Origin: Arcobacter sp. FWKO B
GTDB lineage: Bacteria; Campylobacterota; Campylobacteria; Campylobacterales; Arcobacteraceae
Direction: 5' to 3'
DNA length: 64,000 nt
NCBI RefSeq assembly: GCF_014844135.1
Contig: NZ_CP041403.1
Span: 1,488,001-1,552,000, forward strand
Numbering within the stretch: the stretch's first letter is position 1; the number at the start of each line of letters is the position of its first letter. Below, one piece after another: positions 12,301 through 22,821 of the stretch. Under the pieces are notes generated by a model. That model did not search any database and was not told where the DNA came from. It was given only the letters and a program-made list of their open reading frames with translations. The position numbers and the translations under genes are program-made.

Positions 12301-12909
12301 GAAAAAGAGACATTAGGATTTTATGTTTCTGGACATCCTCTAGATAAGTATAGAGATATGTTAGATAAAATGAATTATACATTAAGCTCTCAAATTGATG
12401 AACTAGGAGATAATTCACAGGCACTTTTTATTGGAAAAATTGAAGAAATCACTACAAAAATCTCAAAAAAAGGGAATAAGTTTGGTATAGCAAATATCAT
12501 GGATTTACACGGCAATATAGAACTTATGCTTTTTGAATCAAAAATGGAAGAGTTAAAAGCATTTAATCTTGATGATCCACTTGGGTTTAAAGTAAAGATA
12601 TCAAAAGATGGCGATTTTACTAGGATGAATCTTATAAAAATTGAGTCACTAGAAGATGCAAAAAAAGAGAAAATTAAACAAAAAAAAGTTGAGCCAGAAA
12701 TACCACCTCTTACAATAGAGGTTCATTTAAGTAATAATGACAAAGTATTATATGATTTATTTGAGGTGGTATCTAAAAACCAAGGAAGACAAGAGTTAAA
12801 TATAGTAATAAAATCAAAACTAGCAGATATTGTACTACAAAGTGGTTATAAGTTTGATCCTAAGTCTCATCAGGCACTAAAAGATATTAACGGGGTATTT
12901 GTTTTATAA
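9385..12909 (+). CDS. dnaE: DNA polymerase III subunit alpha
   Basis: The 1174-residue product is the replicative polymerase catalytic subunit. An N-terminal PHP domain begins with HLHTEYSLLDGANK and continues with TDHGNMFG. The C-family polymerase core has PGRGSAAGS, then the catalytic aspartates in PDIDMDF (about 428-433) and the third aspartate in KFDFLGLKT (about 583). GVIVYQEQVM and FNKSHSAAYA are typical of DnaE, followed by helix-hairpin-helix and OB-fold regions (about 970-1065). The size matches DnaE rather than PolC, and no exonuclease domain is present. CGGAG precedes the ATG. The stop codon overlaps the convergent secretin gene by six bases, so no terminator fits between them. Confidence 0.98.
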   Translation: MSQVPQFTHLHLHTEYSLLDGANKIKELAKKVKEYGMNSVAMTDHGNMFGAIDFYKTMKSNGIKPIIGMEAYLHNNSELDDKSTKQRFHLCLYAKDFEGYQNLMYLSSQAYLNGFYYYPRINKKLLKEHSKGLICSAACLQGEINWHLNLANERNVKFGAKGYDRAKEIALEYKEIFGEDFYLEIMRHGIGDQHFVDEQIIRLSHETGIKIVATNDTHYLRADDAQPHEAFMCIAMNKSFDDPNRLKHSVHEFYLKTPQEIAKLYADIPEAIHNTQEIVNKCNLELKLGDPTPPNFKFTRDFAKEYNLELPENEVEYSLENDKVLFIYECKKGLEERLLLVDENQHEEYRQRLQTEIDIINNMKFPGYMLIVWDFVRVAKELGIPVGPGRGSAAGSLVAYALKITDIDPMKYDLLFERFLNPERVSMPDIDMDFCQARRQEVIDYVVQKYGRVNVAQIITFGKLLAKGVIRDVARVLDVPYAKADAMAKLIPDELGIDLKSSYEKEPAIKELCESDATAKRVWEFALALEGLNRNAGTHAAGVVISNEPLWKKTPLFKPSGMDTIATQYSGKYVEDVDLIKFDFLGLKTLTVIEEANKLVEKRHGKRIDFNLCDVNDKKVYELIQTGNTLGLFQIESSGMQQLNSKLKPTNFEDIIAVLALYRPGPMESGMLNDFIERKHGRAEIEYMFPELEPILKPTYGVIVYQEQVMQIVQTIGGFSLGGADLVRRAMGKKIKEEMDRLKSQFADGAQEKGFDRAKSEELFDLIVKFAGYGFNKSHSAAYAMVTFYTSYLKAYYPTEFMAALLTSEKDKTEKVVKYVDEVKRLGIGLLPPDINKSILDFSATTVDGQNFILFGLGAIKGSGEVAINSIISSRGDEPFRDLSDFISRIDGSKVNKKVIESLAKSGALDCFGYSRKAILAQIDTILEASSKVSSAKKMATGSLFGDAEEMISIELSINQMEEYEPKEILELEKETLGFYVSGHPLDKYRDMLDKMNYTLSSQIDELGDNSQALFIGKIEEITTKISKKGNKFGIANIMDLHGNIELMLFESKMEELKAFNLDDPLGFKVKISKDGDFTRMNLIKIESLEDAKKEKIKQKKVEPEIPPLTIEVHLSNNDKVLYDLFEVVSKNQGRQELNIVIKSKLADIVLQSGYKFDPKSHQALKDINGVFVL

Positions 12910-14295
12910 CCCGAAAATATCATTTACGATTTTTGTATGCGATGAACTCTCTTTTTCATTTTTTGAAGAAGGGAGTTTAATCTTTGATTTTTCTTCTATT
13001 GTATTTATTTGTTCTTTCATTTGTTCTTTTGTATTTTCAAACTCTTGAATTTGTGTGTTGTTTGAAGGCTCCACTATTTCAGGTGTTATAAAAAATACAA
13101 GTTCACTATTTTCATTTTGAAAATCTTTACTTCTAAATAAATGTCCAAGTATTGGAATATCTCCTAAAAGTGGGACTTTGCTAATATCTCTTGATTGATC
13201 ATTTTTAATTAATCCTCCCAAAACTATAGTAGCTCCATCTCTTACAATAACATTTGTTTCAATTGATTGATTCTTAAATCCAGGAACATTACCTACTTTT
13301 GTAGCTGAACTAGGGTCTATTTGTGTTGATTTTGTAATCAGTGTCAAATCTATATATTCACCATTGATGATTTTTGTTGCTAAAACTTCTAAGATAATTC
13401 CATACTCTTTTTCCATATAGCTTGAAACTGGGATTCCACTTGCATTTATAGTTTGTTGTTCCACCATCAACTCACCACCAGCAAGAAATTTTGCACTTTT
13501 TTCCTCTACAGTTAAAATAGTTGATTCATGTAATATAGTAGCAGCTCCAGCAGATGAAAGATATTTTAAAGTCATTCCCACATTAAAATTTTTTCCTAAA
13601 TAGTTTGCTCCAGCAGTTAGTCCACCAGTTAAAGTAACTGCACTTTCCATAAGATTTGAAAGATTAGGGATAAATGAGTTAAAATTTTGTTGTGTTGCAT
13701 CAACATTTGTGTAACCTCTAAGGTAGTTTCTATATCCAACAGCCCAGTTGTTTTTTAGTTCAGTCCCTTTTGTGTTATTGATTTCAGTAATATATAGTTT
13801 TAGTCTTAACATTTTTTTTGTTTTGTCTGTTGTAGTAAAATCTATTAGTTTTGTATCTGTGTCAATACCAGCTTTTTTTAAGATATCTATTATGGTATTT
13901 CTATCTTGTATGGAGTCTAAGGTACCATCTAAAATTATATTATCATTAGATTGTATTATTTTAACTTTTGGATATCTATGTTCTAGTGCAGATAATATAC
14001 TTCTTATATTTCTAACAATATTGATATCTTGCGAAACTATAACATTGTCATAAAATGTAATCAGTAAAGTTGCGTTACCAAACTCTTTTCCTAAAATTTT
14101 TAATTTTTGAAGAGGCATAGAATCATCTTGTATAAATGATACTTCAGCAGTTTTACTATCACTTACTTTTATATTTTTGATCATTTTATCAAATTCTACA
14201 ATTCTATAACTATTTTTTTCTATAGTGATTGTTTGGCTAAAACCAAAACTTACTATAAAAAATAGTAAAGCTATAATTTTTAATATATATTTCAT
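12904..14295 (-). CDS. cpaC: Tad pilus secretin (CpaC/RcpA)
   Basis: The 463-residue protein has a signal peptide (about 1-20), an N-terminal pilus/secretin domain (ITIEKNSYRIVEF through FGNATLLITF) and a C-terminal secretin barrel domain marked by VIVRDGATIVLGGL and the KVPLLGDIPILGHLFR signature, near residues 350-390. It would form the outer-membrane channel through which the Flp pilus passes. It is the last gene of the Tad operon, 10 bases after the TadE-like gene. The tail after about residue 405 is Glu/Lys-rich and probably disordered. No lipoprotein pilotin gene (RcpB/CpaD) is seen in the locus. Confidence 0.92.
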   Translation of the reverse strand: MKYILKIIALLFFIVSFGFSQTITIEKNSYRIVEFDKMIKNIKVSDSKTAEVSFIQDDSMPLQKLKILGKEFGNATLLITFYDNVIVSQDINIVRNIRSILSALEHRYPKVKIIQSNDNIILDGTLDSIQDRNTIIDILKKAGIDTDTKLIDFTTTDKTKKMLRLKLYITEINNTKGTELKNNWAVGYRNYLRGYTNVDATQQNFNSFIPNLSNLMESAVTLTGGLTAGANYLGKNFNVGMTLKYLSSAGAATILHESTILTVEEKSAKFLAGGELMVEQQTINASGIPVSSYMEKEYGIILEVLATKIINGEYIDLTLITKSTQIDPSSATKVGNVPGFKNQSIETNVIVRDGATIVLGGLIKNDQSRDISKVPLLGDIPILGHLFRSKDFQNENSELVFFITPEIVEPSNNTQIQEFENTKEQMKEQINTIEEKSKIKLPSSKNEKESSSHTKIVNDIFGL

Positions 14296-14305
14296 CTTAA
14301 ACCCC

Positions 14306-14734
14306 TTAGTTTAATGTTAAATTACAAGTTATTTGAGATTTATTTACCTCATTAAATACAACTTTTTTAGCGTGAATGTTGCTACTAGGTAGAAATTTAC
14401 TATTATAAGTAGCATAAACATTGAAAATTACTTGATAGTTTTCTGTACTTGAATCTTCTGTACAAACTATATCACCACCACTTATTGTGGGAAAGTAATC
14501 TATTTTTATCTGATTTATACCACTTGCTATAGTACTTTCTTCATTTCCTAAACCTTTCATTCTAGCCCCATAATCTGCTATTGAATCACAATTGTCTTTT
14601 ACCCTTATAGCAGAAGAATAATCAATAACAAAAAATAAAAAACTTACAAACAAAGCAAAGAGTAAGAGCCAAAGCATTATTTGATCAATTGCACCTTTTT
14701 TGTAGTTTAAATTACTTGCTATATTATCTTGCAT
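14306..14734 (-). CDS. TadE-like minor pseudopilin
   Basis: The 142-residue protein has a short N-terminus ending KKGAIDQI, followed by one hydrophobic helix (about 20-42) and a soluble part with a few cysteines. This is the layout of TadE-type pseudopilins, which are cut by the TadV/CpaA prepilin peptidase and assist Flp pilus assembly. The cleavage motif GAIDQI resembles the GAMDKI and GAMDSI of the two small pilins in the same operon. It overlaps the end of cpaB by 11 bases and precedes the secretin by 10 bases. The exact family (TadE or TadF) is not resolved. Confidence 0.7.
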   Translation of the reverse strand: MQDNIASNLNYKKGAIDQIMLWLLLFALFVSFLFFVIDYSSAIRVKDNCDSIADYGARMKGLGNEESTIASGINQIKIDYFPTISGGDIVCTEDSSTENYQVIFNVYATYNSKFLPSSNIHAKKVVFNEVNKSQITCNLTLN

Positions 14735-15884
14735 TTAAAAACTCTTGTGCTTGATTTGGTGAAATTTCTTCTACTGTATTTTCATGAATAAAAAGACCAT
14801 CACAAGTTCTATACCAACTATCTATTTTATCTGTATAAGGTATCATATAGTTCTTATAAACAGTTAAGATTGCCTGTGACCTTGTAGTTGGCTGAGTTCT
14901 TAAGTATGCACTATTTACTTTGACAATAATTAAATCATCTCTATTTTCCTTACATTGGGTTATAAAGTCAGATTTGATAATTGCTGTTTGTGTAAGTCCT
15001 TTATCTGCACTATCAGCATATTCAATAGTGGCTACTTTTTTCAGTGCACTACTAGCTGGTATATACCATCTATAAGGGTAGTTTTTTGTTTTTTGTACAT
15101 CTTGTTGGTCAGTTGAAGATATAGTATCTTGAGTATTACTTTGAGTAATTTGTTTTTTCTCTTCAACATTTGACTTAGTTTTTACCATCCATAGCTGGCT
15201 ACCTCTATTAAAATCATTTATTAGATTTAATAAAATATCACTTTTTATATCAATAACTATTTCATCAGCTTTTACATATTCTTCTTTTTCTACCTCTTTT
15301 TTATTTTCAATTTTTTTTACTTTTATTTTATTGAAAACTTCAGCAACTGGCTTACCAAGAAGGATAAATCCTAAAACTTCCACATCTTTTGCCACATATT
15401 GAACAGAATATTGTGGAAGTTTGTCAGCTGTTGTTGGATATGTTGAGATAATATTTATAATATCTCCTTTTTGTAATGTATAGTTTGGATTATTAAACAT
15501 TCTAAAAGCCATATTATAACTATTGTTTTTATAGTCACTTTTTATAGGGTCTTGTGCTTTTTTTTCTAAAGTATCAGTTATTTTTTCTTTGATGATCATC
15601 TCATTTAAAAACATATCAACTTTTGCATATTTCCCTATAATCTCACCAGAACTAAGAGGTTTTGTTATAAGTTCTTGTTGTGTTATAAAATGTTCTTTTA
15701 AATCATCTTTACTGAATTGATATCCAGAATTAACTGGTTTATTTACTACAAAAACTTTAACTTTTTGGTTCATTTTGGTAATCGTTTTTGTATTTTGTGT
15801 ATAAAAATAATACGCAGCCCCAACCGCTGATAGTAAAAAAGAAGCCAAAACTAATATTATGGCTATTTGTTTATTAAATTTCAT
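14724..15884 (-). CDS. cpaB: Flp pilus assembly protein CpaB/RcpC with C-terminal SH3-like domain
   Basis: The 386-residue protein has an N-terminal membrane anchor (about 8-28), then a SAF-type region (VFVVNKPVNSGYQFSKDDL, SSGEIIGKYAK), followed by the RcpC-like region (LQKGDIINIISTYP). CpaB is a periplasmic component of Tad pilus machines, thought to stabilise the secretin. Residues of about 325-380 (IIVKVNSAYLRTQPTTRS through SWYRTCDGLFIHE) look like a bacterial SH3 domain, which is not usual for CpaB and could bind peptidoglycan. The linker in between is Gln/Thr/Ser-rich. It lies 10 bases after tadC. Assignment to CpaB is good from position and SAF pattern. Confidence 0.82.
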   Translation of the reverse strand: MKFNKQIAIILVLASFLLSAVGAAYYFYTQNTKTITKMNQKVKVFVVNKPVNSGYQFSKDDLKEHFITQQELITKPLSSGEIIGKYAKVDMFLNEMIIKEKITDTLEKKAQDPIKSDYKNNSYNMAFRMFNNPNYTLQKGDIINIISTYPTTADKLPQYSVQYVAKDVEVLGFILLGKPVAEVFNKIKVKKIENKKEVEKEEYVKADEIVIDIKSDILLNLINDFNRGSQLWMVKTKSNVEEKKQITQSNTQDTISSTDQQDVQKTKNYPYRWYIPASSALKKVATIEYADSADKGLTQTAIIKSDFITQCKENRDDLIIVKVNSAYLRTQPTTRSQAILTVYKNYMIPYTDKIDSWYRTCDGLFIHENTVEEISPNQAQEFLNAR

Positions 15885-15894
15885 TTTTTATCCT

Positions 15895-16734
15895 TTATAT
15901 CCCAAAGCTTATTTTTCCTGCCATCATAGGAAATACTATAAATGCACCAAGTGCTGGTAAAACAAAAATAAAAATTACTAGCATAAGATACATATTTAAA
16001 GTACTAACTTTACCTTTAATTTTATAAAATTTTTCTTTTCTCATTTCATCAGATTGCATAGAAAATATATTTTTTACACCAATACCAGTTTCTTCACTTA
16101 AAATAAGAAAATCTACAATCTTATCCATTTCCTTACTATCAATCCTAAGTTTAAGATTTTCATAGGCTTTTTTTGTGGAATAATTGGTCATTTCATATTC
16201 AAGTATAGCAATCTCTTTTAATAAATCTTCACATATTATGCCGTGAGCTTTATTTGATACTTGAAAAAAAGCGTTTTTCAAGCTTCCTCCAGCTTCTAAA
16301 ATAACATTAATCAAATCCAAAAAGACACCAAGGTCATTTTCTATCTTTTCTACTCTTTCAGCTTTTGATATACTTAAGTAAATATCACCACTAAATATAA
16401 TCAATAAAATAGCCACTATTACAGCAATAACAGATAAATTAAAAGAGAGAAAAAAAGGTAATACTACACCTATAATTATACCAATAATTACAAAAATAAG
16501 TTTTGCTTCATGATATTCTTTTAAAGTTATGCCAGATTGTATCAGTTTAAGGTTAAAATCTGGGGTATTTTTATGACTTTTTGATAGTTTTTTTTGCTTA
16601 TCTATGATATCTGAAACATCAAGTTTTGATAAAGATACAATTAGTTTTTTGGTTTTTAGCCTTTCATTAATAAATAAAAATATCAAGATGATAAGTCCAG
16701 TAAATAATGGGGCTAAAATTAACATATATAACAT
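15895..16734 (-). CDS. tadC: Tad inner-membrane platform protein TadC
   Basis: The 279-residue membrane protein has hydrophobic segments near 4-24, 80-115 and 245-275, and a cytoplasmic T2SSF/GspF-type domain (FLDLINVILEAGGSLKNAF, and IVDFLILSEETGIGVKNIF near 205-225). With TadB it forms the inner-membrane platform on which TadA acts. It starts one base after the tadB stop, so the two are translationally coupled. Length and order agree with other tadB-tadC pairs. Confidence 0.9.
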   Translation of the reverse strand: MLYMLILAPLFTGLIILIFLFINERLKTKKLIVSLSKLDVSDIIDKQKKLSKSHKNTPDFNLKLIQSGITLKEYHEAKLIFVIIGIIIGVVLPFFLSFNLSVIAVIVAILLIIFSGDIYLSISKAERVEKIENDLGVFLDLINVILEAGGSLKNAFFQVSNKAHGIICEDLLKEIAILEYEMTNYSTKKAYENLKLRIDSKEMDKIVDFLILSEETGIGVKNIFSMQSDEMRKEKFYKIKGKVSTLNMYLMLVIFIFVLPALGAFIVFPMMAGKISFGI

Positions 16735-16735
16735 A

Positions 16736-17665
16736 TTATTTCACCTTTGTAAGAAGGTTATTTACAAATAATCCAAATGCAACCCACAATGATATAAAAA
16801 ACATCTGTATTTTCCCTTCAGTTGAACCAAAAAAGTGTTCATTTAGGTTATTATCCAATGATGTATTCATCATCATATATATAAACACAACAAGAGCCAA
16901 AATCATATATGTTCCAACTTTTATCTCTTTTGTTGAAGATGTTATCTCTTGTTTTAATTCCCCTTGGTCTTGTAGTGTTTTTCTTAGTTTATCAAGTGTA
17001 TTAGAAAACTTACCACCACTTTGTCTCCCTATCATAATAGTAAGATAAAATATTCTCAGCTCTTTTGAGTCTACTAATATAAACATTTTTTCAAAAGCTT
17101 TGACCTCTCCTATAATATCTTTTTCATTAATATAGATATTAAAAACATCTCTTGTAAAATCTGATTTACAAGTTGCAACAGCTTTTTTAAGTGATTGTTC
17201 AAAACCTACACCACTTTTCATCATACTTGTGACTTTGTCAATTATCTCTTTTAGTGATACATTAAACTCTTCTTGTCTCATACTGATTACTTTTGATAGT
17301 ACTATATAAGGAAAAAGGCTAAAAAGGAAAAAACATACTACAATAGTAATAACATGTGGAACAACCAAATATACAAGTACAGCAGCTAAAATAGCAAAGG
17401 CTATAGTAATAAAAATAAATATATATTCAGCACCATAGTGTAAAAAACCTGCAAAGTTTAGTTTGCTTTTTAACCAGCTTGTTTTTTTGAAATCAATTCG
17501 TTCTTGTTGCTTATTTTTATTTAGTATTTTTGTATTTTCAAGTACCAGTTTATTGATAATATCTTGAGTTTTTCTATTTTCTATATAATAGTCAAATACA
17601 AAATATCCAAGCAATACACTTAGTACTGGTATAACTACAATGAAAAACCAAATAATATTATCCAA
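16736..17665 (-). CDS. tadB: Tad inner-membrane platform protein TadB
   Basis: The 309-residue protein has an N-terminal helix (about 5-25), two central hydrophobic helices (about 80-130), a GspF-type cytoplasmic domain (KEIIDKVTSMMKSGVGFEQSLKKA; TIMIGRQSGGKFSNTLDKL) and two C-terminal helices. It is the first of the two platform proteins of the Tad machine. It lies 9 bases after tadA and directly before tadC, the standard order. Confidence 0.9.
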   Translation of the reverse strand: MDNIIWFFIVVIPVLSVLLGYFVFDYYIENRKTQDIINKLVLENTKILNKNKQQERIDFKKTSWLKSKLNFAGFLHYGAEYIFIFITIAFAILAAVLVYLVVPHVITIVVCFFLFSLFPYIVLSKVISMRQEEFNVSLKEIIDKVTSMMKSGVGFEQSLKKAVATCKSDFTRDVFNIYINEKDIIGEVKAFEKMFILVDSKELRIFYLTIMIGRQSGGKFSNTLDKLRKTLQDQGELKQEITSSTKEIKVGTYMILALVVFIYMMMNTSLDNNLNEHFFGSTEGKIQMFFISLWVAFGLFVNNLLTKVK

Positions 17666-17674
17666 AAGTTATCC

Positions 17675-19261
17675 TTATAACATATGTTGAAAATGGGGCC
17701 ATCTATGAAAAAATGATGGATCCCTCTTTGTAAAGACATTTAAAAATTCATTTTTCCAACCACACATTTTTGAAGGTAGATCTTTTTGAAGCTCTTCTAT
17801 CAACATCTCTCTTGTCATTTCAAAATTTGGATCAAATACCCTTTTGTCTAAATCTACACCAAACATATTCATTTGTTCAAGTGTTCTGCTTGGAGTTGCT
17901 AATACTTCAAACTTACCTTTTACTTTTTTCATATCTGTTGTATCTCTTTTGAACTTGAAAATGTCATTAAGTGAAATCACACCATTATCTTCCATTCTTT
18001 TTTCAATTTCACTTATGGCTATAACTTTTCTACTACCATCAGGAAACCTTACAAGTTGAAGAATAATATCAACTGCACTAACAATTTGTGCTCTAATAAA
18101 ACCTATATTTGCTGTTGGTCTTGCTTCAAGGTACATATTTTCTACCCTTACAAGTGCTTCTTTTACATTATCAGCATGTATTGTAGTCATTGAGCCTGGA
18201 TGTCCAGTATTCATAGCATTTAGCATTACCACAATTTCAGGTCCTCTACACTCACCAACTATAATCCTTCTAGGACTAGATCTAAGAGCAGAGCGGAGTA
18301 AAAAGTCAAGGGTAATCGCCCCTTTGCCTTCTTCATTTGCATTTCGTGCTTCATATGATCTTACACTATGACAAGGCATTTGTGGTTGCATCTCTTTTGT
18401 ATCTTCTATAACCATAAGTTGCTCATTATCATCAACAAATCTTGTAATAGCATTTAAAAATGTTGTTTTACCGCTAGAAGTTCCACCACTTACTATAATA
18501 TTACATTTTCCTTTAGATACTTTTGCTAAAAAATAAGCCATTTTATAATCCATTTGACCACTATCAATCAAGCTTTCTAAAAGTAAAGGGATATCGTTAA
18601 ACTTTCTTATTGTCACACAAGTTCCACTATTTGCTGCAATTGGAGGAATTTGAACTTCTACCCTTGAGCCATCATTAAGTTTGCTTGATATAATAGGGTG
18701 AGCTTCATCTATTTTACGATTATTTTCTGCAAGCATTTTATCTACAACTTTTCTGAGTTCTTCTTCACTTCTAAAAGTAAATGGTGTAATCTCTGTTTTC
18801 CCTTCATAGATAATATCAATATAATCTTTTGTATTTACAATAACATCATTTAATCCATCTTTTGCCAAATCAAAAATAGTACTAATAGGACCATACCCTA
18901 TAACAAAATTGATAATAAATGTTTTGATATCATCAAGAATTTCTTTTGAAAGTCCTCTTGTTTCTGGAAATGCTGATATAAATTCAGGCAACACTTCTTC
19001 TAAGGACTCTTTAGTGATTTTTTTATCTGATTTGAGGTTTGCCATAAAACTATCATTGATTTTATAAGCAAGATCCAAAAGTCTTTTATTTACATAAATT
19101 TCAGGATATCGTAACTTAGAATTAAAACTTTGTTGTTTAATAGTTTCAATTTTTGTACTCAATTCCAAAGACGGCTCAATTTCATCTAAACCTTTTTGGA
19201 ACAAGTTCTCTTTTTCTAGTTTTTTCTCTTCATCTTCAATAAGTGCTCTTAAGCTTCTCAT
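17675..19261 (-). CDS. tadA: Tad pilus assembly ATPase TadA/CpaF
   Basis: The 528-residue protein is a secretion ATPase of the VirB11/CpaF branch. The Walker A is GGTSSGKTT near residues 258-266. IEDTKEM follows as the Walker B-like Asp box, then SPRRIIVGECRG and the histidine box GHPGSMTTIHAD. It would power polymerisation of the Flp pilus, and in some systems retraction. The N-terminal 100 residues are charged and helical. Its ATG overlaps the stop of the tadZ gene (ATGA), showing tight coupling. All catalytic boxes are intact. Confidence 0.94.
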   Translation of the reverse strand: MRSLRALIEDEEKKLEKENLFQKGLDEIEPSLELSTKIETIKQQSFNSKLRYPEIYVNKRLLDLAYKINDSFMANLKSDKKITKESLEEVLPEFISAFPETRGLSKEILDDIKTFIINFVIGYGPISTIFDLAKDGLNDVIVNTKDYIDIIYEGKTEITPFTFRSEEELRKVVDKMLAENNRKIDEAHPIISSKLNDGSRVEVQIPPIAANSGTCVTIRKFNDIPLLLESLIDSGQMDYKMAYFLAKVSKGKCNIIVSGGTSSGKTTFLNAITRFVDDNEQLMVIEDTKEMQPQMPCHSVRSYEARNANEEGKGAITLDFLLRSALRSSPRRIIVGECRGPEIVVMLNAMNTGHPGSMTTIHADNVKEALVRVENMYLEARPTANIGFIRAQIVSAVDIILQLVRFPDGSRKVIAISEIEKRMEDNGVISLNDIFKFKRDTTDMKKVKGKFEVLATPSRTLEQMNMFGVDLDKRVFDPNFEMTREMLIEELQKDLPSKMCGWKNEFLNVFTKRDPSFFHRWPHFQHML

Positions 19262-20859
19262 TTATCCCCTTTTGATAAAAATGAAAGAATTCCTTTTTTT
19301 TCTTTTTCGTTTTTGATATCTTGAGTAAAAAAATGTTTTTTTACTAGTATATCTTCAAGACTTTTTACAAATACCGAATCTTTAGATGTTTCACAGGCAA
19401 GTTCACAATAGTTCCATGCACGCCCTAAAGTTTTGTAATCATTTTTTATTTTAAAATCAAAATGGAGTTTTTCATCCTCTTCCATATTTAAAATAGATAA
19501 AATATCATCGGTAGATATTGCACATTCTGAGTCATATCTATTGATTAAAAATGATGTTTTTTCCTTAAGTCCAGCTCTTTTTAAAAGATTGTAAAAAGTT
19601 TTTAGTTTTGAAATATGAGGCAATGTCATTTCAGTCACAAGCCAAATTTCATTAACTAAGTCATACATAGTTGTTTTTAGATGTGAAGCATCAGCTGTTC
19701 CAATATCTACAATAATATAGTTAAAATGGCTACTTATTTGTTTTATATAATCCAATAATTTAGTTATAAAAACATCTTTTTCTAAAAACTCTTTGTCAAT
19801 TTGTTTTTGGATACCTGTTATTGCATAAAAATTTTCTTTTATTTCTACTAAACCATTTTCAAGGTTTTTTGCAATGTCATATTCACTTGAATTTACTAGG
19901 TCTATTATAGTTTTTTCTGGAACAGGATTTTGCTCTAAAAATAGATTACTTACTGCTTTTGTTGTAGATAAATCTATATACAAAATATTTTTATCAAACA
20001 TATTCTTAGCCATCATACTAGCTAGATTCATAGCAATAGTTGTTGTTCCAATTCCTCCACTTATCCCACAAAGAGCAATTATTTTGTTGTTTGATTTATT
20101 TTTGTTTATAAGTTTTTTTCTTGTTTGAAGAATAATTGGTTTTAGATTTTCTGCTCTAAATTGGTTGATAGGTATATATGTCTCAATACCAAGTTTACCA
20201 CATAGCATAGATAGTTTATGATCATCAGGTCCAATTACGATTATGAGCTCATTGAGTTTTTTGATTAGTTCTTGACTTTTTACAATAGTGTCTTCATCGC
20301 TAATAAGGTATATAACTATATGTTTTATATCTTTTGATTTAATACTTACTAGGTTTTCATTTAAAGATGTCTCTAAAAAAATATCAACATTAAAAAGTCC
20401 TTTTAGTCCATTTTGCATAGCATTTGCAAATTCACCTAGTGATTGGTCATGAACTAAATGGATATTAAACATAGATTGTGTACCAATTAGCTCTTTTTCA
20501 ACCTCATATAGTTTGAATAAATCTCTTTTGATTTTATTAAATGTCTTTTTGAGTGCAGAAAGGTTGCTTTTGAGTTTGTTTGATATGACGACTTTCCCTA
20601 AAACTAAACCACCTTTTTTAATAAGAAAATCAAATTTATTTAGTCTTGAATAAGTCTCTTCATCTATTACGATATCGCAATTATTATTTACACTAAATTG
20701 GTAGATAAAGTCATTATATTCATAGTTATATTTATAATAAGAGAGATAATTAAGACTCGATAATGTACATAAAAGCTCAAACATCTCTTTGATATTTTCT
20801 TCAAGAGTTATTTTAGCCATTCTTAGCGTTAATTGGCTATGATAATTTTTAAGTGTCAT
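19258..20859 (-). CDS. cpaE: TadZ/CpaE-type pilus localisation ATPase with atypical P-loop
   Basis: The 533-residue protein has an N-terminal stretch of about 130 residues without a recognised fold, a receiver-like region (about 150-245) lacking the normal phospho-acceptor pattern, and a ParA/MinD-type domain (about 260-510). The P-loop reads GISGGIGTTT, so both lysines of the deviant Walker A (KGGxGKT) are absent; such divergence is known among TadZ proteins. YIIVDIGTADASHL is the Walker B-like part. TadZ proteins mark the pole or site of pilus assembly. The gene follows the tadG-like gene by 20 bases, with GGACAG before the ATG, and overlaps tadA by four bases. ATP hydrolysis is doubtful. 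Confidence 0.85.
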   Translation of the reverse strand: MTLKNYHSQLTLRMAKITLEENIKEMFELLCTLSSLNYLSYYKYNYEYNDFIYQFSVNNNCDIVIDEETYSRLNKFDFLIKKGGLVLGKVVISNKLKSNLSALKKTFNKIKRDLFKLYEVEKELIGTQSMFNIHLVHDQSLGEFANAMQNGLKGLFNVDIFLETSLNENLVSIKSKDIKHIVIYLISDEDTIVKSQELIKKLNELIIVIGPDDHKLSMLCGKLGIETYIPINQFRAENLKPIILQTRKKLINKNKSNNKIIALCGISGGIGTTTIAMNLASMMAKNMFDKNILYIDLSTTKAVSNLFLEQNPVPEKTIIDLVNSSEYDIAKNLENGLVEIKENFYAITGIQKQIDKEFLEKDVFITKLLDYIKQISSHFNYIIVDIGTADASHLKTTMYDLVNEIWLVTEMTLPHISKLKTFYNLLKRAGLKEKTSFLINRYDSECAISTDDILSILNMEEDEKLHFDFKIKNDYKTLGRAWNYCELACETSKDSVFVKSLEDILVKKHFFTQDIKNEKEKKGILSFLSKGDK

Positions 20860-20879
20860 ATCTGTCCTTTAATTTTGTG

Positions 20880-21944
20880 TTAGTAAACAAGTTGAACATC
20901 TCGTTGTAATATAGTAAGATCCATTCTAAATAAACCACTGCCAGAACAATCTTTACTCTCAACCCAATCAACCCAACTTATATTTGAAAATATTTGCCCA
21001 GTATCATCCAAAAAAGCTGCTTCTACATCAGCATCTGAGGTTTTTTTATCTCCGCAATATATTTTATCCATAGAAACTGATATCAAATTGACGACATTCA
21101 TAGCACTGTCTTTGTCATTATCGCACCCTAAAAGGGCTATACTGATATTCCAAGGAGATGCGGCAGAGTCATTAAACTTATGAACTTCCAAAGCAGATGC
21201 AAGTTGCTGAGCATCATTATATATTACTTTAGAAAAATCCCCATCACTATCATATAAGTTTGAATCAACTAAATAAACATCTTGTTCTTGACTATTAAAC
21301 GAAGTAACTTCATTTTTAAAGTGAGCAAATCCACTTTGAGAGCTATCAGTTCTATCTGGATTTGTGTAAGCTAATCCATAAAATCCAAATTGTTCACTAG
21401 AGTTATAAATATCATATGGTTTATATAGCAGTTGCAAACCCTGTCCATAAATGAAGTCATCTCTATCGCAGATATTTATAGCAAATGGTACAAAATCATT
21501 TACCTGATTTCTTATATTTATATTAGCTTTTGACTCAGCATTTAGATTAAATCCCATTAAATCTAAAAAACGATACCAAAATGTATTTTGCATATAACCA
21601 TCAATTTTAACAATTACAGATTTTTGAGCACTTTCCAAGTCCCAAATATATGATACTAGATTTTTAACTTCTAGACCCAGTTTTGTTTGGTCTAACATAT
21701 CATTTGATATAAGCTCTGCTTCTTCTATTACTTGATCTTGGTCTGCTTGGGTAGATGTTCTACTCTCATAATGTTGTATAATGTAATACTTTGACAAAGT
21801 TAAAGCAGCATTATCAGTAATCTTTTTTAGTTGATAGTATTTATTTCTTGTTTCCATCTCATCAGCTACGGTAGCACCAAAAACTATCAATGAAACAAAA
21901 ATAAATAAACCTAATAAAATCTGATCAACCAAGGCTCTTTTCAT
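20880..21944 (-). CDS. TadG-like pilus-associated protein
   Basis: The 354-residue protein has an N-terminus, MKRALVDQILLG, leading into one hydrophobic helix (about 9-25) and a long soluble domain. This resembles the N-terminal TadE/TadG-like part of Flp pilus-associated proteins. The processing region (ALVDQI) looks like a variant of the GAMDKI motif of the pilins, but lacks the glycine. The soluble part has several cysteines and no clear von Willebrand motif, so it may be a distant TadG or a large pseudopilin. Its ATG overlaps the tadV stop (ATGA). Confidence 0.65.
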   Translation of the reverse strand: MKRALVDQILLGLFIFVSLIVFGATVADEMETRNKYYQLKKITDNAALTLSKYYIIQHYESRTSTQADQDQVIEEAELISNDMLDQTKLGLEVKNLVSYIWDLESAQKSVIVKIDGYMQNTFWYRFLDLMGFNLNAESKANINIRNQVNDFVPFAINICDRDDFIYGQGLQLLYKPYDIYNSSEQFGFYGLAYTNPDRTDSSQSGFAHFKNEVTSFNSQEQDVYLVDSNLYDSDGDFSKVIYNDAQQLASALEVHKFNDSAASPWNISIALLGCDNDKDSAMNVVNLISVSMDKIYCGDKKTSDADVEAAFLDDTGQIFSNISWVDWVESKDCSGSGLFRMDLTILQRDVQLVY

Positions 21945-22372
21945 AATGGATATACCCCAATCATATAAGCTATTTCAGTAAATGCTACAGCCAAAACCAT
22001 AGCAGGTACCATAGGAGCAAAACGCCTTTTTTTAATTTTTTTGTAAAAAACTAAAAAAAGAAGTTGCAATAAACCACTTAAAACTAAAAATAACGCAAAA
22101 GCTAAAGGTTCTAAATATATTGCTATAATAAGCAAATATTTAATATCACCACCACCTATATAGCCTAGATTTAATTTACTAATAAACCAAAACAAAAAAA
22201 CTAATGCAATGGGCATTAAGAGATTGTACATAGTTAATGTAGAGTTGAAAAAACCAAATAAAATAACAAATACAAAAAGTGTCAAAATAAGTTCATTTGG
22301 CACCACATACTTTTTGCAATCAAAATATATCAAAAAAAGTGATAGAGTGTAAAAAGCAATACTTACAAACAA
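21941..22372 (-). CDS. cpaA: Prepilin peptidase TadV/CpaA (A24 family)
   Basis: The 143-residue membrane protein is a short A24-family aspartic protease. The first catalytic aspartate is in FDCKKYVVPNEL near residue 18 and the second in GYIGGGDIKYL near residue 75. Several hydrophobic helices span the protein. It should cleave the N-termini of the small pilins and the TadE-like proteins of this locus. There is no N-methyltransferase domain, typical for the Tad type. It starts immediately after the second pilin gene. Confidence 0.9.
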   Translation of the reverse strand: MFVSIAFYTLSLFLIYFDCKKYVVPNELILTLFVFVILFGFFNSTLTMYNLLMPIALVFLFWFISKLNLGYIGGGDIKYLLIIAIYLEPLAFALFLVLSGLLQLLFLVFYKKIKKRRFAPMVPAMVLAVAFTEIAYMIGVYPL

Positions 22373-22564
22373 TTATTCTAAAGCCTCACTTAGTACTGTA
22401 GCTCTTTTTTCAGAAGCACTTGTTTGAACACTCTCTTTTTGATCTTCAAAAAAAGTAAACAAACCTATAAGTAATCCAATCCCCATAATCACTAACAATA
22501 ATGTTACTAAAATTGAATCCATAGCCCCTCTTGTACTTTGAAGTCTCAAAAGAAATACTTTCAT
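22373..22564 (-). CDS. Second small Flp-like pilin
   Basis: The 63-residue protein has the layout of a Flp prepilin: a basic leader (MKVFLLRLQSTRG), the motif GAMDSILVTLLLV, one long hydrophobic helix and a short charged tail. The predicted cut is after the glycine. It is about half identical to the pilin gene just upstream through the leader and helix, so the two are tandem duplicates that diverged in the tail. It may be a minor pilin or an alternative major subunit. 59 bases separate it from the first pilin; cpaA follows directly. Confidence 0.75.
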   Translation of the reverse strand: MKVFLLRLQSTRGAMDSILVTLLLVIMGIGLLIGLFTFFEDQKESVQTSASEKRATVLSEALE

Positions 22565-22623
22565 ACAAAACCTTTATCCAAATTGAGAAGGTAGATACTT
22601 TATATTATCTACCTTCAAAGAAA

Positions 22624-22821
22624 TTATTCTCCTGTTGTTTCGCCAACAACTTCAGTGATTTTGCTTCCAGCTGCATCTTTTACAGTATCCATTTCGTCAC
22701 TCATCCAAGTATTTAAACCAACAACAAGTCCAACACCAATAACTACTAATAAAAGAGTAACAAGAATTTTATCCATTGCACCTTTTGTATTTTTTGCTAA
22801 TTTTAAAATATATGTCATCAT
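22624..22821 (-). CDS. flp: First small Flp-like pilin (probable major pilin)
   Basis: The 65-residue protein has a short basic leader ending NTKG, then AMDKILVTLLLVVIGVG and a single hydrophobic helix (about 17-38), with a Gly/Glu/Thr-rich tail. This is a type IVb (Flp) prepilin, though it has Asp at mature position 3 where classical Flp pilins have Glu at 5. It heads the Tad operon: AAAAGGAG lies six bases before the first of two tandem ATGs, and a TATAAT box stands just upstream. First position and strong ribosome site fit the most abundant subunit. Confidence 0.8.
   Translation of the reverse strand: MMTYILKLAKNTKGAMDKILVTLLLVVIGVGLVVGLNTWMSDEMDTVKDAAGSKITEVVGETTGE

What the first reader, a model, noticed from the sequence alone, without database searches (positions are those of the whole stretch)
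14306..22821. Four Tad-locus proteins share an unusual G-A-x-D-x-I type processing motif
The two pilins read GAMDKI and GAMDSI, the TadE-like protein GAIDQI, and the TadG-like protein ALVDQI, each directly before the hydrophobic helix. Classical Flp pilins have Glu at mature position 5 (often GxxxxEY). Here an Asp at position 3 is conserved instead. This suggests a variant substrate rule for the local TadV peptidase and a different helix registry in the pilus.
Basis: partly seen in the sequence, partly recalled or inferred. Interest (0 to 1): 0.55.

Follow-up and report, generated by a model that had tools for sequence, protein, structure and literature searches.

The report
Tad pilins with a shifted acid
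A family of bacterial surface hairs is built from tiny proteins whose key acidic residue sits two places earlier than the textbook position, so the textbook way these hairs hold together may not apply to all of them.

Summary
The four Tad-locus proteins read KGAMDKI, RGAMDSI, KKGAIDQI and KRALVDQI, each just before the N-terminal helix. It is not an artefact: 27 of 104 genomes of the window's family carry this Tad type. All 32 leader-bearing pilin rows have Gly-1 and Asp+3; 25 of 25 TadE rows have Asp/Glu+3; 25 of 25 scorable TadG rows have Asp/Glu/Asn+3. No clade A pilin row has Glu5-Tyr6. The canonical Flp model finds nothing in 104 genomes. Nine of nine loci of another Tad lineage in the phylum keep GVTAIEY. 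The sister lineage (Sulfurimonas and kin) has no acid there.

The reading as a TadV substrate rule is weak. Published mutants, seen as cited in later papers, show Glu5 dispensable for processing but needed for assembly. In 15 of 76 outgroup loci, all Clostridia, pilins have D/E/N+3; in 12 of those 15 the locus also encodes Glu5 TadE-type proteins. My best explanation is an assembly change: an acid plus polar partner at +3/+4 stands in for Glu5-Tyr6. A new variant of a known system; geometry and cleavage are untested.

The parts
22624..22821 (-). flp1, major pilin candidate, 65 aa, ...NTKG|AMDKILVTLLLVVIGVG; GAMD codons 22771-22782
   Evidence: ORF; pattern hit; relatives; no pilin-family Pfam hit
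22373..22564 (-). flp2, second pilin, 63 aa, STRG|AMDSILVTLLLV; GAMD codons 22517-22528
   Evidence: ORF; 47% identical to flp1
21941..22372 (-). tadV, short prepilin peptidase (Peptidase_A24), Asp18 and Asp76 of GGGD
   Evidence: Pfam; alignment of 12 TadV sequences
20880..21944 (-). tadG-like pseudopilin, 354 aa, MKRA|LVDQILLG; ALVD codons 21924-21935
   Evidence: ORF; no Pfam hit; relatives; AF2 model (pLDDT 70.2)
19258..20859 (-). tadZ (ParA/BcsQ-like)
   Evidence: Pfam
17675..19261 (-). tadA/cpaF assembly ATPase
   Evidence: Pfam; best solved relatives CpaF, 6.7e-71
16736..17665 (-). tadB, T2SSF platform protein
   Evidence: Pfam
15895..16734 (-). tadC, T2SSF platform protein
   Evidence: Pfam
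14724..15884 (-). rcpC/cpaB-like (sub-threshold SAF and SH3_3 only)
   Evidence: Pfam; place in the locus
14306..14734 (-). tadE-like pseudopilin, 142 aa, KKG|AIDQIMLWLLL; GAID codons 14684-14695
   Evidence: sub-threshold Tad/TadE Pfam; alignment; AF2 model with helix 10-61 plus four strands, pLDDT 85.6
12904..14295 (-). rcpA secretin
   Evidence: Pfam

Best explanation
This is a Tad (type IVc) pilus locus of a divergent Campylobacterota lineage whose pilins and two pseudopilins share the prepilin site [G/A]|x-hydrophobic-[D/E]-[K/Q/N]-[I/M]. TadV is inferred to cut after Gly (pilins) or Ala/Gly (pseudopilins). The conserved acid then lies at mature position 3 with a polar partner at 4, and this pair does the filament-core job that Glu5-Tyr6 does in canonical Tad pilins: it satisfies buried polar groups near the N-termini of neighbouring subunits. 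Because position 3 is about 200 degrees round the helix and 3 angstrom from position 5, the helices would have to pack with another rotation or contact set. That pilins and both pseudopilins carry the same pair suggests that they polymerise through one interface. Shown: motif, conservation, lineage limits, absence of Glu5-Tyr6. Inferred: cleavage site, contacts, packing.
For: Clade A counts: 35 pilin rows, 32 with a leader: -1 Gly 32/32, +3 Asp 32/32; over all 35 rows +4 is K28/R4/S3. TadE 25 rows: -1 A22/G3, +3 D14/E11, +4 Q20/N5. TadG 25 scored of 26: -1 A23/G1/S1, +3 D21/E2/N2, +4 Q24/T1. Acid and polar partner are kept while +1 and +2 vary in the pseudopilins. Flp_Fap in 0 of 104 family genomes; Caulobacter is the one of 14 control genomes that rings. 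Canonical G|VTAIEY pilins in 9 of 9 clade C loci, where TadG-type proteins seen in six loci have no acid at all, so an acidic TadG start is itself peculiar to clade A. TadA tree (106 of 122 sequences): clades A and B lie together beyond a branch of 1.59, SH-aLRT 100, clade C elsewhere. Glu5/Tyr6 hydrogen-bond network in Caulobacter, needed for assembly and not processing (PMC11067988, passages). Clostridial +3 pilins beside Glu5 TadE in 12 of 15 loci show that +3 pilins recur and suggest that the peptidase does not read the acid's position.
Against: Sister clade B has pilins KG|[ML]SGV with no acid, in all 8 rows found in 9 loci (L041 and L077 are the same contig, so 7 distinct rows of 8 loci): an acid near the N-terminus is not needed by every member of the wider lineage. 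Clostridial +3 pilins have no donor at +4 (AAEIV, ASDMV, DSNMV), so the proposed pair is not general. No mature N-terminus, filament structure or expression was seen. TadG/TadE have mostly Ala-1, and 14 of 21 TadG leaders measured are 4 residues, shorter than the 6-26 reported (PMC4471445, passage), so they may not be cleaved. Three pilin-like rows lack the leader.
Confidence: 0.55

Rival explanations
1. Asp3 is a recognition residue of the local TadV: the peptidase has a variant substrate rule.
For: The acid is shared by all three substrate classes of one locus and sits three residues from the presumed scissile bond; the window's TadV is only 16-28% identical to the five clade B and C TadV sequences tested.
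Against: Glu5 reported always dispensable for processing (PMC4471445, passages; PMC11067988, passages). The two Asp of the peptidase are kept in all 12 TadV sequences aligned, 7 of clade A, 2 of B, 3 of C. In Clostridia +3 pilins and +5 TadE share a locus (12 of 15); a simple pattern scan of the TadA strand found exactly one GxGD peptidase-like ORF in 15 of 17 such loci, one of them doubtful (L105), and none in two.
Confidence: 0.12
2. The cut lies elsewhere: after Ala (GA|MD, acid at +2) in the pilins, or two residues earlier so that the acid is at +5 as usual.
For: Aligning the pilin helices of clades A and B by eye puts B's KG|M opposite A's GA|M (sequences); two leaderless pilin-like ORFs start exactly at that Met (L167, L170).
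Against: A +5 acid would put Glu, Thr, Gln or Asp, never Gly, at -1 of the pilins (sequences). A +2 acid would put Val, Tyr, Phe, Leu, Ile or Met at -1 in 44 of 50 TadE/TadG rows, while the +3 reading gives Gly or Ala at -1 in 32 of 32 leader-bearing pilins, 25 of 25 TadE and 24 of 25 TadG.
Confidence: 0.15
3. The charged cluster before the helix is only a membrane-topology feature at the inner face, with no role in assembly or processing; the pseudopilins may not be cleaved.
For: The TadG leader is often just four residues such as MKKA (14 of 21 measured); a short membrane protein elsewhere in the genome has a similar start, GKIDKIARIAIGIVIIL (L216).
Against: Negative charge at +3 is kept in all leader-bearing pilins and all TadE rows, and replaced only by Asn (2 of 25) in TadG, more than topology seems to need.
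Confidence: 0.13

Closest known systems
Canonical Tad/Flp (type IVc) pilus with Flp_Fap pilins (Caulobacter; clade C of Campylobacterota here)
   Same: tadV, tadZ, tadA, tadB, tadC, rcpC-like, rcpA and tadE-like genes together; small pilin (65 and 63 aa) with Gly-1 and apolar helix; TadA closest to CpaF
   Different: No Glu5-Tyr6; Asp3-Lys4 (or Ser4) instead; pilins not recognised by Flp_Fap; pseudopilins mostly Ala-1 and Asp/Glu3
Clostridial Flp1_like pilins (PF16982)
   Same: A sub-group has D/E/N at +3 and no Glu5 (15 of 76 outgroup loci by script; L104, L119 and L131 in addition by eye)
   Different: Window pilins do not match PF16982; Clostridial TadE-type proteins keep Glu5 in 12 of the 15 loci; no donor at +4
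Sulfurimonas-type Tad (clade B)
   Same: Grouped with clade A by TadA; similar pilin core LLLVIVGVGL
   Different: Pilin KG|MSGVL or KG|LSGVM with no acid; TadE-like start ...[AGP]QI[MI]A with Gln and no acid
Archaeal pilins/archaellins (class III signal peptide)
   Same: Glu5 often absent and exceptions to Gly-1 common in archaea (PMC4471445, passages)
   Different: Only far sub-threshold NCBIfam hits: flp2 to archaeal UpsB (E 0.062) and BasB (0.064), flp1 none; TadA is CpaF-like, not FlaI-like

Membership tests
Tad (type IVc) pilus machinery | CpaF/TadA-type ATPase | tested here: met
   T2SSE Pfam 9.5e-46; CpaF 6.7e-71 versus FlaI 2.4e-30
Tad (type IVc) pilus machinery | Two separate T2SSF platform proteins TadB/TadC, secretin RcpA, TadZ | tested here: met
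Tad (type IVc) pilus machinery | Short prepilin peptidase TadV with two Asp | tested here: met
   143 aa, Peptidase_A24 1.4e-9; Asp18 and Asp76 invariant in 12 sequences
Flp_Fap pilin (PF04964) | Match to the family model | tested here: not met
   No hit for the window pilins; 0 of 104 family genomes, control Caulobacter rings
Flp_Fap pilin (PF04964) | Glu/Asp at +5 and Tyr at +6 | tested here: not met
   +5 is I/V and +6 is L/I in all 35 clade A pilin rows
Class III signal peptide (bacterial) | Leader ending in Gly before an apolar helix | tested here: met
   For the pilins: 32 of 32 leader-bearing rows. The pseudopilins mostly have Ala (TadE 22 of 25, TadG 23 of 25); cleavage at Gly or Ala is described in PMC3244431 (passage)
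Class III signal peptide (bacterial) | Leader cleaved by TadV at the predicted bond | not testable with these tools
   needs mass spectrometry
Flp1_like pilin (PF16982) | Match to the family model | tested here: not met
   No hit for the window pilins; of five Clostridial +3 pilins tested four match (L085, L089, L131; L090) and one does not (L103)
TadE-like pseudopilin | Pfam Tad/TadE model; long helix plus beta domain | tested here: inconclusive
   Sub-threshold, E 0.018 and 0.085; model has helix 10-61 and four strands, pLDDT 85.6, but no PDB fold match at E 0.001 or better

The most novel reading that the evidence does not exclude
The Glu5-Tyr6 hydrogen-bond network described for Tad pili, and implied to be universal, is only one solution. 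At least three lineages lack it: a group of Clostridia (D/E/N+3 in pilins only), Sulfurimonas and kin (no acid) and this lineage, where the pilins and both pseudopilins share an acid and polar partner at +3/+4, giving a filament with a different helix packing.
Probability: 0.45. Interest if true: 0.62.

Novelty: new variant of a known kind. Interest (0 to 1): 0.45.

Why it matters
Glu5 is treated as the near-invariant residue of bacterial type IV pilins, and a recent Tad filament structure paper infers a universal mechanism from the Glu-Tyr contact (PMC11067988, passages). A lineage with the acid at +3 in all three subunit types is a natural experiment: it separates what the peptidase needs from what assembly needs. 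It also shows that the standard Flp model misses these pilins, so Tad loci of this family may well be annotated without a pilin (inference).

Tried and rejected
Isolated artefact: rejected, the motif is in every clade A row with a leader that could be read. Chance: rejected by the genome-wide pattern controls, with one lookalike reported. Archaellum or archaeal pilus instead of Tad: rejected for the ATPase; for the pilins NCBIfam gave only far sub-threshold hits. Fold searches of the TadE and TadG models against the PDB gave no match at E 0.001 or better; nothing was concluded from them. The models used 21 of 25 TadE rows and 13 of 26 TadG rows.

Counting. The first motif counter left out 5 of 35 pilin, 10 of 25 TadE and 5 of 26 TadG rows, mostly because its search window was cut short; one search replaces its counts. 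The classifier left 31 of 76 outgroup loci without a called pilin and missed L104, L119 and L131; its hit in L129 for a second pilin is spurious and was not counted. The tree used 106 of 122 TadA sequences, clade A thinned to 12, quick method and simple model, with long branches flagged. L041 and L077 are the same contig. The family searches count matches at E 1e-60 and 1e-100. The name Arcobacteraceae for the window's family is recalled and given by no tool; clade B is named from record titles.

Literature: I found no description of a +3 acid in Tad pilins in searches (listings read) or in the passages of six papers. The primary TadV mutant paper was not held; its result is taken from papers that cite it. 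Figure 2B of PMC3244431 (Flp-like pilins of Gram-positive bacteria, said to have diverged at Tyr6) could not be seen and may already show +3 acids.
Full report
What is there. The window holds a Tad locus on the - strand, in the order flp1, flp2, tadV, tadG-like, tadZ, tadA, tadB, tadC, rcpC-like, tadE-like, rcpA, from 22821 down to 12904. Pfam supports the secretin, the two T2SSF platform proteins, the T2SSE ATPase and the A24 peptidase, and a ParA/BcsQ-like TadZ. The ATPase is closest to solved CpaF (6.7e-71) and far from FlaI (2.4e-30). Neither pilin matches a pilin family in Pfam; in NCBIfam flp1 has no hit and flp2 only far sub-threshold ones (archaeal UpsB 0.062, BasB 0.064). TadG has no Pfam hit, and TadE is below the cut-off of the Tad and TadE models.

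The motif. TadG is A-L-V-D, not G-A-x-D, so the shared form is [G/A]-x-hydrophobic-D-polar-I. In the whole genome the DNA pattern for GA[I/M]D occurs 18 times; judged by eye, only the three Tad copies are near an ORF start before an uninterrupted apolar stretch. A wider pattern gives 27 sites: three are Tad proteins, seven are an AVIDQI stretch of chemoreceptor-like proteins (identity recalled), and one (L216) is a short membrane protein with a similar start.

Relatives. A TadA of this kind (E 1e-60 or better) is in 22 of 397 genomes sampled across the phylum. They split into clade A (the window's family f1, 7 genomes), clade B (family f7, 6) and a divergent clade C (families f2 and f3, 9). 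In the window's family 27 of 104 genomes have it (E 1e-100 or better). I fetched loci from all of these (the window for its own genome). Pilins were found in 24 of the 27 genomes; in the other three (L158, L168, L174) only short contigs without that end of the locus were available. Counts over clade A, with one named MAG (L076) added: 35 pilin rows, of which 32 have a leader, all with Gly-1 and Asp+3; the other three lack it (L054, L167, L170). TadE: 25 of 25 rows have Asp (14) or Glu (11) at +3 with Ala (22) or Gly (3) at -1. TadG: of 26 rows one is truncated (L076); the other 25 have Asp (21), Glu (2) or Asn (2) at +3, with Ala (23), Gly (1) or Ser (1) at -1. The next residue is polar in every row: K/R/S in pilins, Q/N in TadE, Q/T in TadG.

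Controls. The canonical Flp_Fap model finds nothing in 104 genomes of the family, while one of 14 control genomes, Caulobacter, rings. In clade C all nine loci have pilins reading G|VTAIEYALIAVA. Pseudopilins with Glu5 are visible in eight of the nine (not in the listing for L044), and the TadG-type proteins seen in six have no acid at their start. So the phylum has both kinds, in different TadA lineages: clades A and B lie together beyond a branch of 1.59 changes per column (SH-aLRT 100), clade C among the other Tad ATPases (quick tree, simple model, long branches). In clade B (record titles Sulfurimonas) the 8 pilin rows found in 9 loci read KG|[ML]SGV with no acid, and the TadE-like rows found in 8 of 9 loci have Gln but no acid; two of these loci, L041 and L077, are the same contig. 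The window genome also has a longer, PilD-like peptidase (259-aa frame) and three N-methyl family matches, one of which reads KGFTLIEIAIVL with the normal Glu5.

A wider surprise. All 15 are Clostridia. Of five such Clostridial pilins tested against Pfam (four of the 15, and L131, which the script missed) four match Flp1_like and one, L103, does not. In 12 of the 15 loci the same locus encodes TadE-type proteins with ordinary Glu5. A simple pattern scan of the TadA strand found exactly one GxGD peptidase-like ORF in 15 of 17 loci (the 15 plus L104 and L131), one of them doubtful (L105), and none in two. So the +3 acid of pilins has arisen more than once or is old, and one peptidase probably handles both kinds.

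Interpretation. A review states that Glu5 is always dispensable for processing but needed for homopolymer assembly (PMC4471445, passages), and another that tip complexes are capped by a subunit lacking Glu5 (PMC10191384, passages). The Caulobacter Tad filament shows Glu5 hydrogen-bonded to the backbone of residue 3 and to Tyr6 of neighbours; these residues are said to be crucial for assembly and not processing, and a universal mechanism is inferred (PMC11067988, passages). I therefore favour an assembly role: an acid with a polar partner at 3-4 in place of 5-6. The distance from the presumed cut to the first charge after the helix is similar (clade A 23-34, median 28; clade C 25-26), so the acid moved within a helix of similar span. 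The peptidase keeps both Asp. Not shown: the cut itself, cleavage of the mostly Ala-1 pseudopilins with leaders as short as MKKA, and any contact in a filament.

Models. AlphaFold2 gives TadE a long helix (10-61) and four strands at pLDDT 85.6, as expected of a pilin-like protein; the TadG model is weaker (70.2). Neither finds a PDB match at E 0.001 or better.

Verdict. A real, lineage-wide variant of the Tad pilin N-terminus, worth a specialist's attention because it contradicts an inferred universal; the peptidase-rule reading is unlikely.

Noticed in passing
L167:4292-4438 (+), L170:14147-14305 (-), L054:2346-2486 (-): Second pilin-like ORFs without a leader: L167 and L170 start at the Met of the motif (MEKIL..., MDRIL...), L167 with what looks like a good ribosome-binding site; in L054 an in-frame stop precedes the helix. 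Possibly leaderless or decayed pilins.
   Followed up: partly
L036:11235-13655, L163:11313-13757, window 20880-21944: TadG-like proteins vary from 314 to 846 aa; the two long ones tested carry bacterial Ig/cadherin repeats, suggesting a tip adhesin whose outer part is exchanged.
   Followed up: partly
L157:3155-6158: Two TadG-like genes lie side by side in one genome (G002), and a third TadG-like copy is on another contig of it, L054.
   Followed up: no
L042:5050-6822 and similar ORFs in L038, L043, L079: Clade B loci have a 550-590 aa protein next to TadZ; the one tested has no Pfam hit. It lies where clade A has TadG.
   Followed up: no
window 14724-15884: RcpC has a sub-threshold SH3_3 stretch at residues 325-360 (E 0.0059), which I do not recall from other RcpC proteins.
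   Followed up: no
L162:11479-13134: About 1.65 kb separate tadB and tadC in this genome, unlike the other clade A loci read; an insertion is likely.
   Followed up: no
L093:12842, L105:12825, L130:13986, L139:10773: Clostridial pilins with Asn3 carry an acid at +1 here (DSN, DTN, EAN, ETN), as if the charge had moved to the very N-terminus.
   Followed up: no
G000:C1:1778536 (L216): Short membrane protein reading MTKNVGKIDKIARIAIGIVIILLG resembles the pilin motif; probably a DUF2892 protein (recalled, not tested).
   Followed up: no
clade C loci L044, L046-L050: Canonical TadG-type proteins of clade C start GAIALIL... with no acid, unlike the TadG-like proteins of clade A, so the acidic TadG start is peculiar to clade A.
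   Followed up: partly
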